From contig NZ_LR962863.1 of assembly GCF_900458895.1 (NCBI RefSeq), forward strand, positions 1,240,001-1,304,000: a stretch of 64,000 nucleotides of DNA, given 5' to 3'. The stretch's first letter is position 1; every line of letters begins with the position of its first letter. The notes beneath the pieces were generated by a model. It did not search any database and was not told the origin of the DNA. It was given only the letters and a program-made list of their open reading frames with translations. The DNA is from Staphylococcus schleiferi (GTDB taxonomy: Bacteria > Bacillota > Bacilli > Staphylococcales > Staphylococcaceae). Shown here piece after piece: positions 22,590 to 46,831 of the stretch. The position numbers and the translations under genes were made by a program.

Positions 22590-23228
22590 ATGCGATCTAC
22601 ACAACATGTTTTTGATTTGCTTAAGCATTATAAGATTCACTTATGTCTATGTATTTCTTTATTAATCATTATTCTTTGTTCTATATTCTTTTTTACGGGA
22701 TTTGACAGCAAAGAATCAAAAGATGAGATATCTCTGCCACATCAAAGTGATTTGATAGAGTCAAGTGTTGGGAAAGATAAGCAATCCAAGCCAAATGAAC
22801 AGACGATACCTTCAACAGTTATAGTCGATATAAAAGGTGCAATAAAGCATGCGGGAACATACGAAATGAAACCTAACGCGCGTATAAAGGATTTATTGGA
22901 TAAAGCTCAGCCACTTAAGAACGCAGATTTATCAACGGTTAATTTAGCCGAAAAGTTACGTGATCAAAAGATGATTTATATTCCAACTGTTAACGATAAA
23001 CAACAAGTTGAGGCACATGCTGAATCATTAGGTAAAGAGCATGAGACTTCAGATTCAAATCAAGTCATTAATTTAAATACAGCAGAAGAAAAAGACTTGA
23101 CCCAAGTTCCTGGAATTGGACCTTCGAAGGCCCAAACAATCATTAAATATAGAGAAGAACACAACGGCTTTAATGCTGTTGATGAATTAAAAGAAATTAA
23201 AGGTATCGGCGATAAAACGTTTGAATAA
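22590..23228 (+). CDS. comEA: competence protein ComEA (DNA receptor), C-terminus possibly shortened
   Basis: A 212-residue protein: an N-terminal membrane anchor (about residues 17-37), a SLBB-like domain (VIVDIKGAIKHAGTYEMK), a Ser/Lys-rich linker and a C-terminal double helix-hairpin-helix domain (INLNTAEEKDLTQVPGIG, then LKEIKGIGDKTFE). It binds incoming DNA outside the membrane and delivers it to ComEC. The stop comes straight after GDKTFE, where relatives usually continue for several residues with the last helix. A group I intron core begins just downstream, so the final codons may lie beyond it. Confidence 0.88.
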   Translation: MRSTQHVFDLLKHYKIHLCLCISLLIIILCSIFFFTGFDSKESKDEISLPHQSDLIESSVGKDKQSKPNEQTIPSTVIVDIKGAIKHAGTYEMKPNARIKDLLDKAQPLKNADLSTVNLAEKLRDQKMIYIPTVNDKQQVEAHAESLGKEHETSDSNQVINLNTAEEKDLTQVPGIGPSKAQTIIKYREEHNGFNAVDELKEIKGIGDKTFE

Positions 23229-23710
23229 TGAAAAGACCTAAGCTTTTGACATTTTAGATGTATTTTTCAAGTCAAAGCGCCTCTTTTATTCAGTGTGTAG
23301 AGAAATCTGCACATCGTGACAGTACGACTGTCCAACAAAGAAATTGAATTGCTTGAAAACCCTAAAGCCTGCTTGACCACAACGTAGAGATAATCAAACT
23401 CAAGCGTGAAGGTTGCGAAACTGCAGAAAAAATAAGCAGGATGACATAAGGTTAAAACCTAAGTGTTTTTTGCAATGGGCAACTAGCAGCCAAGCCTAGA
23501 AATAGGAAGGTTCAACGACTATTCCTCTTGAGGGAAGTACACACAAGCGTGTGGAAGTGGTTTCGCCGTAATGGATAATGCCAACGGAAAAGATATAGTC
23601 TGTGCTTGTATGAAAATACAAGATGCACGTAAAGGTGCTGACGGTGGTGTAGCGTCTACCGTTGAACAACCCAAACCTAAATAATCTCTCATAAAGTGTA
23701 TGAGATCGAA
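23229..23710 (+). ncRNA. group I intron (no recognisable endonuclease ORF) at the comEA 3' end
   Basis: Core elements appear in order: AATTGCTTGAAAACCCTAAAG (shown here only as the P/P4 strand, 23346-23366), the P5 arms GCCTGCTT / AAGCAGG, GGGCAACTAGCAGCC (Q, 23478-23492), TTCAACGACTA (R, P7 5' strand, 23511-23521) and AAGATATAGTC (S, P7 3' strand, 23590-23600). P7 pairs GACTA with TAGTC. P9-type hairpins follow: CTTGTAT / ATACAAG, CGGTGG / CTACCG, and TCTCAT / ATGAGA ending about 23705. A GAAA-capped hairpin (23301-23320) lies upstream. The same core occurs in phage T4 td and other phage introns. Exact splice sites are undetermined. Confidence 0.85.
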
Positions 23711-23941
23711 CCGTATAGAAACCGTTTTTATACTTTATCATTTTTGGTGAATTCATATGTAAAACCTATCTATATGCTGAAATCTCATTCAGATTTGTTA
23801 TAACGGGTAATTATTGAGGTAAAAACAGAAAATCAAATCTTACTTTTCAGTCTGATTGTAGAATCTAACTAGTGAAATACTATAGAAAAAGTTATAATTT
23901 AATAAAGAATCATTGGAAATAACTTCGAGGAGTGACTTAAA
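23711..23941 (+). other. intergenic region between intron and comEB
   Basis: It contains a hairpin GTATAGAAAC / GTTTTTATAC (23713-23733) followed by a T-rich stretch, and a -10-like TATAAT near 23896. No gene is visible. The start of the 3' exon of comEA, if present, should lie near 23707-23720. Confidence 0.4.
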
Positions 23942-24406
23942 TTGAAACGTATTCAATGGCATGACTATTTCATGGCGCAATCACATTTACTAGCATTGAG
24001 ATCGACTTGTACTCGATTATCAGTCGGTGCAACCATTATTAAAGACAATCGTATTATTGCTGGGGGCTATAATGGCTCAGTTTCAGGAGAAGTCCACTGT
24101 ATTGATGAAGGTTGTTTAATAGAAGACAGTCATTGTATTAGAACGATTCATGCAGAAATGAATGCAATATTGCAATGCGCCAAGCAAGGTGTCTCAACAG
24201 AGGGGGCTACAATTTACGTGACGTATTTTCCATGCTTAAATTGCACAAAATCTATAATTCAAGCCGGAATCAAAACTGTTTATTATGCCGAAGATTACCA
24301 TAATCATCCCTATGCAATCCAGTTATTAAAGCAATCTGGAATTAATTTTGAAAAGATCGACTTTAATGCTCAAACTATTGCTAATTATCTTCTTAATACA
24401 AAATGA
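23942..24406 (+). CDS. comEB: ComE operon protein 2 (dCMP deaminase-like)
   Basis: A 154-residue cytidine/deoxycytidylate deaminase-family protein. Zinc-binding motifs are HAE in TIHAEMNAILQC and PCLNC in FPCLNCTKS; DEGC and EDSHC add cysteines. B. subtilis ComEB is dispensable for DNA uptake itself. The start is TTG at 23942 after GAGGAGTG. Its stop overlaps the comEC start as ATGA. Confidence 0.95.
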   Translation: MKRIQWHDYFMAQSHLLALRSTCTRLSVGATIIKDNRIIAGGYNGSVSGEVHCIDEGCLIEDSHCIRTIHAEMNAILQCAKQGVSTEGATIYVTYFPCLNCTKSIIQAGIKTVYYAEDYHNHPYAIQLLKQSGINFEKIDFNAQTIANYLLNTK

Positions 24407-46757: not shown

Positions 46758-46831
46758 TTGTACAAAAATAGCGCAAATGCCTCTATCATTTTAAGTGACT
46801 AAACCAAAAATAAAGGAGACATATTGCGCCT

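What the first reader, a model, noticed from the sequence alone, without database searches (positions are those of the whole stretch)
23229..23710. Group I intron core adjacent to the comEA 3' end
The sequence shows the P-Q-R-S core in order, with P7 (GACTA/TAGTC) and typical P9 hairpins, resembling phage introns such as T4 td. It begins right after comEA GDKTFE-stop, where ComEA proteins usually continue by some residues. Self-splicing could therefore restore the last codons, or the intron may lie in the 3' end region of the comE transcript. No homing endonuclease ORF is visible, suggesting an ORF-less, old insertion. An intron in a DNA-uptake gene is unusual because transformation itself could spread it.
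Basis: partly seen in the sequence, partly recalled or inferred. Interest (0 to 1): 0.8.

Follow-up and report, generated by a model that had tools for sequence, protein, structure and literature searches.

The report
Self-splicing transposon remnant splitting comEA
A staphylococcal DNA-uptake gene is interrupted nine codons before its end by a self-splicing RNA element left behind by a transposon, so the cell probably has to splice this message to make a working DNA-uptake protein.

Summary
It spans 23226-23828 (603 nt). The stop codon that seems to end comEA (23226-23228) lies inside it.

The element is best read as an ORF-less IStron: a group I ribozyme fused to the ends of an IS200/IS605-type transposon. 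Its closest relative (90% identical ribozyme) sits on an Enterococcus plasmid beside transposase genes. A natural empty allele fixes that relative's boundaries as TTGAA|T...CAG|. TTGAA is outside the published targets for this type (TTGAT, ATTAT, TTTAT; PMC4227781), and the 5' exon ends in A instead of U.

Of 84 Staphylococcus genomes only the window's and one other, S. coagulans, carry it. The two intron copies differ at 7 of 602 sites, against 61 of 730 four-fold sites of flanking genes. The 3' exon holds the equivalent of B. subtilis ComEA K199, whose alanine mutant transforms at 0.0031 of wild type (PMC9747964). Splicing is inferred, not shown.

The parts
22590..23225 (+). comEA exon 1 (212 codons, ends ...GIGDKTFE)
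   Evidence: ORF; HHH_3 match at 157-212 reaching only profile position 58 of 65; relatives continue for 8 more residues
23221..23225 (+). TTGAA target / 5' exon end that pairs with the internal guide sequence
   Evidence: natural empty allele of the closest relative; pairing with 23289-23293
23226..23828 (+). ORF-less IStron, predicted intron (603 nt)
   Evidence: 5' boundary by homology to the L053/L100 pair, 3' boundary by reading-frame scan and terminal CAG
23226..23228 (+). in-frame stop codon TAA, first three bases of the element
   Evidence: sequence; TGA at the same place in L053
23231..23288 (+). transposon left-end palindrome forming the outer part of P1
   Evidence: sequence inspection (AAAAG/CTTTT and GCTTTTGAC/GTCAAAGC); described for IStrons in PMC4227781 section 16
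23289..23293 (+). internal guide sequence TTCAG
   Evidence: exon/IGS types co-vary across 36 loci
23289..23622 (+). ribozyme core matched by RF00028
23517..23600 (+). P7 (23517-23521 with 23596-23600), P7.1, P7.2, P3 3' strand and P8
23605..23662 (+). P9, P9.1, P9.2
23664..23669 (+). GAACAA motif after which the transposon part begins in IStrons
   Evidence: motif from PMC4227781 section 14
23675..23685 (+). 5' arm of the inverted repeat that closes the transposon part (10 of 11 pairs with 23810-23820)
23686..23809 (+). 124-nt remnant between the inverted-repeat arms, no ORF, origin not identified
   Evidence: no match in plasmids and none convincing in session loci
23810..23820 (+). 3' arm of the inverted repeat
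23825..23828 (+). ACAG, element 3' end and predicted 3' splice site (CCAG in S. coagulans)
   Evidence: relatives end in CAG
23829..23855 (+). comEA exon 2, KIKSYFSV*
   Evidence: best of 713 tested 3' junctions, score 26.2 against 7.0 for the next

Best explanation
An ORF-less IStron sits in comEA of this Staphylococcus (sister of S. coagulans). Its ancestor was probably an IS200/IS605-type transposon carrying a group I ribozyme, which inserted right after a TTGAA in the next-to-last helix-hairpin-helix coding stretch and later lost its transposase genes. In the comEA transcript the ribozyme pairs its guide UUCAG with exon UUGAA, cleaves after that A, and joins it to exon 2 after the terminal CAG. 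The result is KTFE-KIKSYFSV*, a full-length ComEA. Without splicing, the stop codon at the start of the intron ends ComEA at KTFE, without the final residues of its second DNA-binding motif. Shown: structure, empty-site boundaries in the closest relative, exon 2, conservation between two species. Inferred: splicing in the cell, loss of transposase genes in place, need of splicing for competence.
For: RF00028 match. Co-varying helices in 32 ribozymes. 90% identical ribozyme on E. gallinarum plasmid NZ_CP078507 followed by an annotated IS200/IS605 transposase and a second ORF annotated 'transposase'. Natural empty allele NZ_CP040462 reads TTGAA-CCTGG where the plasmid copy reads TTGAA|TGATTAGGG...GGTTCAG|CCTGG, with no ambiguity at either edge. 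Exon 2 is the best of 713 junctions: 26.2, next 7.0, best of 200 shuffles 17.7. Second copy in S. coagulans spliced the same way gives RIKSYFSV*, with an indel just before its 3' splice site that leaves the frame intact. Intron divergence 7/602 against 61/730 four-fold sites (Fisher p 3e-10). All 7 substitutions fall outside the listed helices. ComK, a ComGA-type ATPase, comEB and comEC are present and open. BcISt1, another IStron, splices in vivo and its 5' exon ends in G, with the following U belonging to the element (PMC4227781 section 18).
Against: No RNA data. The splice-site pair would be A-U, where group I introns nearly always have U-G; if cleavage fell one base later (TTGAAT|), the junction would be a stop codon (*IKSYFSV*). 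The minimum-energy fold of the whole stretch does not reproduce P1. Against comEA's own four-fold sites alone (3/71) the low intron divergence is not significant (p 0.08). Exon 2 has 1 change in 27 sites, too few to show selection. The 3' end is ACAG/CCAG, not the published TCAG, and the 124-nt remnant has no match.
Confidence: 0.85

Rival explanations
1. Dead relic: the element once spliced but no longer does (no U-G pair at the splice site), and ComEA is now the 212-residue form ending KTFE.
For: The guide offers U opposite exon A and A opposite the following U, so no U-G pair. 38 database members fall in one 212-aa cluster, which is how annotation would show either case. Staphylococcal competence is often silent (recalled).
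Against: The E. gallinarum copy has the same UUCAG guide and A-ended exon and comes from an element that still has transposase genes. Helices intact, substitutions only outside listed helices. Exon 2 stays in frame in both species despite an indel next to its 3' splice site.
Confidence: 0.12
2. Homing-type group I intron that lost its endonuclease.
For: ORF-less group I intron in a protein-coding gene; distant blastn matches include Staphylococcus phage introns.
Against: Best matches are IStron ribozymes; element ends, GAACAA motif and inverted repeat follow the IStron plan; target-to-guide covariation matches transposon targets.
Confidence: 0.02
3. Different junction in the RNA: cleavage after TTGAAU, giving KTFE* also after splicing; the intron would then serve only comEB-comEC message processing.
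For: A U at the 5' splice site is the near-universal rule (PMC4227781 section 15).
Against: Empty allele puts the T inside the element; BcISt1 is published to splice before such a U; conserved KIKSYFSV* would be pointless.
Confidence: 0.06

Closest known systems
IStron of Enterococcus gallinarum plasmid pEG002 (L053, unnamed in the record)
   Same: Ribozyme 90% identical over 23287-23616; guide UUCAG; TTGAA target; T as first element base; CAG 3' end
   Different: Carries an IS200/IS605 transposase gene and a second ORF annotated transposase; lies in a pilin-related gene; its transposon part does not match the window remnant
CdISt1 and other group A IStrons (PMC4227781, sections 14-16 read)
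   Same: Group I ribozyme with P7.1/P7.2 and P9.1/P9.2, GAACAA-type motif, closing inverted repeat, subterminal left palindrome, IS200/IS605 kinship through L053
   Different: Target TTGAA instead of TTGAT/ATTAT/TTTAT; exon ends in A instead of U; ends ACAG instead of TCAG; no ORF
ORF-less BcISt1 of emetic Bacillus cereus (group B; PMC4227781 sections 14, 18)
   Same: Both ORFs lost, inverted-repeat stem kept, vertical inheritance; 5' exon does not end in U and the U is the first element base
   Different: IS607-type, GG-ended target, CGG 3' end
E. durans / E. lactis plasmid copies (L054, L099)
   Same: TTGAA|TAA start; GAACAA then a short inverted repeat, no annotated ORF inside
   Different: About 73% identical; different gene (SufB-like, recalled, not searched); guide of L099 altered to TTAAG

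Membership tests
Group I intron | Conserved core matching RF00028 with P3-P8 | tested here: met
Group I intron | U-G pair at the 5' splice site | tested here: not met
   exon A opposite guide U; exceptions known in group B IStrons (PMC4227781 section 15)
Group I intron | Self-splicing with guanosine | not testable with these tools
   no RNA data
Group IA2 subclass | P7.1 and P7.2, extended P9 domain | tested here: met
   P7.1, P7.2, P9, P9.1, P9.2 counted; P9.0 not tested
IStron | Transposon part after P9.2 and a GAACRA-type motif, closed by an inverted repeat | tested here: met
   GAACAA at 23664-23669; 10 of 11 pairs between 23675-23685 and 23810-23820
IStron | Transposase ORF(s) | tested here: not met
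   none in this copy, none of the two domains in the genome; ORF-less copies are accepted as IStrons in PMC4227781. Filed as a non-autonomous derivative
IStron | Insertion with no target duplication | tested here: met
   L053 against L100, for the relative; the window has no known empty allele
Group A IStron | Target TTGAT, ATTAT or TTTAT with exon ending in U, 3' end TCAG | tested here: not met
   TTGAA|T and ACAG. Not filed as group A as published
Group B IStron | GG-ended target, CGG end, IS607 kinship | tested here: not met
   TTGAA target; relative annotated IS200/IS605
Homing group I intron | Homing endonuclease gene | tested here: not met

The most novel reading that the evidence does not exclude
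The stranded ribozyme has become a switch on DNA uptake: whether comEA message is spliced (full-length ComEA) or not (KTFE* product) is set by conditions, so competence in this lineage is gated by RNA self-splicing.
Probability: 0.1. Interest if true: 0.8.

Novelty: new variant of a known kind. Interest (0 to 1): 0.5.

Why it matters
It would be an IStron in a staphylococcal chromosome, in a core competence gene, with a target and 5' splice site outside those published for IS200/IS605-type IStrons (PMC4227781; that text has no occurrence of Staphylococcus, comE, and TTGAA only inside one unrelated repeat). It also explains why ComEA is annotated eight residues short in these species, and gives a simple RNA test: does a group I ribozyme cleave after A when its guide and target change together? 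The 3' exon holds residues known to matter for transformation, so splicing failure should equal loss of DNA uptake.

Tried and rejected
Homing intron of td type: rejected on relatives and element plan. Exon 2 close to 23885 (a short in-frame stretch after CTATAG): rejected when flank comparison showed that this is the native comEB upstream region. Cleavage after TTGAAT: kept as a rival; it gives a stop. Origin of the 124-nt remnant: no match in plasmids at E 0.01, none convincing among session loci; Rfam at relaxed threshold gives only the intron and a chance CRISPR repeat at E 0.99. Single-sequence folding: z -3.7 against 20 shuffles, but the minimum-energy structure does not show P1 or the pseudoknotted core. 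Guide pattern TTCAGTRYRTAGAGAAATYTG: 2 of 398 genomes of the class, own and S. coagulans; the one viral contig hit, L095, shows no ribozyme around it. Literature: searches for IStron with group I intron, comEA with group I intron, S. schleiferi with intron, IStron with TnpB, and others listed no paper on this insertion; only open-licence PMC text is held. Papers: PMC4227781 outline, sections 14, 15, 16, 18 and passages; PMC9747964 section 10 and passages; PMC3984707 and PMC8987985 passages; the rest listings only.

Full report
Observation. RF00028 matches 23289-23622 on the plus strand with 65.2 bits (gathering 50, E 2.8e-14), and it is the only match in the 2.52-Mb host genome. I wrote 14 named helices plus P3 on the window sequence (70 pairs) and counted them on an alignment of 32 IStron ribozymes, the window plus 31 of the 38 references printed. 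96.7% of 2221 cells pair, 45 of 70 pairs change on both sides, and the covariation score is 0.552 against 0.180 for shuffles and at most 0.098 for slid partners. P7 and P7.1 never vary, so they neither support nor oppose; P7.2 pairs in only 76.6% of cells and the P8 helices in 90.8%. Single-sequence folding gives z -3.7 against 20 shuffles but a minimum-energy structure that lacks P1 and cannot show the P3/P7 pseudoknot.

Where the intron ends. Of 28 comEA loci fetched from other Staphylococcus genomes, 23 gave a C-terminal tail by pattern, and every one of those continues for 8 residues after the KTFE position (such as KLKDYLTV*); five loci were missed by the pattern, three of which are visible. 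I scored the translation after each of 713 possible 3' junctions against those 23 tails. Position 23829 (KIKSYFSV*) scores 26.2, the next best 7.0, and the best of 200 shuffles 17.7. Just beyond exon 2 the sequence resembles the comEA-comEB spacer of L011-L015 (TAACTAGT...TATAAT). The intron is therefore 23226-23828 and exon 2 is 23829-23855.

What it is. The ribozyme is 90% identical over 23287-23616 to one on E. gallinarum plasmid pEG002. There it is followed by an annotated IS200/IS605 family transposase and a second ORF annotated 'transposase' (TnpB-like by position and size, not tested). Such chimeras are IStrons (PMC4227781; sections 14, 15, 16 and 18 read). The window follows their plan: P9.2, a GAACAA motif (23664-23669), and an inverted repeat with 10 of 11 pairs (23675-23685 with 23810-23820). 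The 124 nt between the arms hold no ORF and match nothing found. The genome has no match to Y1_Tnp or PF07282.

Boundaries. The pilin-related gene interrupted in pEG002 is uninterrupted in NZ_CP040462 (100% identical over the 100-residue query; the record is not among the 29 listed for the element). The empty allele reads GTGTATTGAACCTGG; the filled one GTGTATTGAA|TGATTAGGG...GGTTCAG|CCTGG. Neither edge can slide. So in the closest relative the target is TTGAA, the T belongs to the element and the end is CAG. The same edges in the window give TTTGAA|TAATG...ACAG|AAAATC.

Target and guide change together. Of 42 entries, 36 unique loci gave a guide; six were dropped (three duplicates, two without a recognised guide, one too short). 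All 14 with guide GTCAG have TTGAT upstream, against 4 of the other 22. All 17 with GTAAG have TTAT upstream, but TTAT is short and also occurs in 7 of the other 19. Three of the 4 with TTCAG have TTGAA in the scanned stretch, against 3 of the other 32; the fourth, L054, has TTGAA just outside it. Published IS200/IS605-type IStrons use TTGAT, ATTAT or TTTAT with an exon ending in U (PMC4227781 section 15). Here the exon ends in A, opposite guide U. Group B IStrons also break the U rule: BcISt1 was shown by RT-PCR to splice after G, the next U being the first base of the element (section 18).

Distribution and conservation. Among 84 Staphylococcus genomes, the full element occurs in the window's and in G016 (98%); four others gave only short matches. 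13 of 84 genomes have some group I intron over the cut-off, these two included. Window against S. coagulans: intron 7 substitutions in 602 sites plus one deletion and one insertion; ribozyme 2 in 333; exon 2 1 in 27 (K to R); four-fold sites of eight flanking genes 61 in 730. Fisher p is 3e-10 against all eight genes, 6e-6 against comEA, comEB and the methyltransferase gene together (16/200), but 0.08 against comEA alone (3/71). All 7 substitutions lie outside the listed helices. The low divergence fits constraint but could partly reflect a slowly diverging locus. The insertion lies just before the 3' splice site (ACAG against CCAG) and does not disturb the spliced frame.

Why splicing should matter. 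B. subtilis ComEA mutants K197A and K199A transform at 0.54 and 0.0031 of wild type (PMC9747964 section 10). The spacing K193, K197, K199 fits only KSFEKIK in 8dfk, and K195-T196, K199, K201 of the Geobacillus protein fits KTLEKLK in 8dss (my assignment). The first and third residues of exon 2 are these two lysines. The K199-equivalent is not universal: 17 of 23 staphylococcal tails have K there, 6 have S or C. The host has matches to ComK and a ComGA-type ATPase, and intact comEB and comEC. A 212-aa form with 38 members is the only cluster at 98% identity in the protein database; no full-length form appears, though clustering at 90% could hide one.

Mechanism, with status. Insertion after TTGAA by an IS200/IS605-type transposase: inferred from the relative. 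Loss of transposase genes: inferred. Guide pairing and ribozyme fold: supported by covariation. Cleavage after A and ligation to exon 2: inferred from empty-site register, frame and the BcISt1 precedent. Non-function of the KTFE* product: inferred from B. subtilis mutants.

Judgement. A new variant of a known kind: an ORF-less IStron with a TTGAA target and an A-ended 5' exon, in a competence gene. The open point is whether it splices and whether that is regulated.

Noticed in passing
46765-46822 (-): Rfam match to the staphylococcal small RNA sau-5949 (65.7 bits, gathering 56).
   Followed up: no
23942-23944: comEB in the window starts with TTG (AAATTGAAACG), where relatives such as L011 and L012 have ATG.
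   Followed up: no
L080 (Epulopiscium sp., genome contigs): Apparent ORF-less IStron: ribozyme followed almost at once by TGGGAGGCTCAG and then host sequence.
   Followed up: partly
L054 and L099 (E. durans and E. lactis plasmids): ORF-less TTGAA-type IStron copy with a near-perfect inverted repeat, in what I recognise as a SufB-like fragment (recalled); the guide differs by one base between the two copies.
   Followed up: partly
L038-L044, L046-L052: Other group I intron matches in 13 further Staphylococcus genomes, 11 of them over the cut-off; little DNA similarity to the window element.
   Followed up: no
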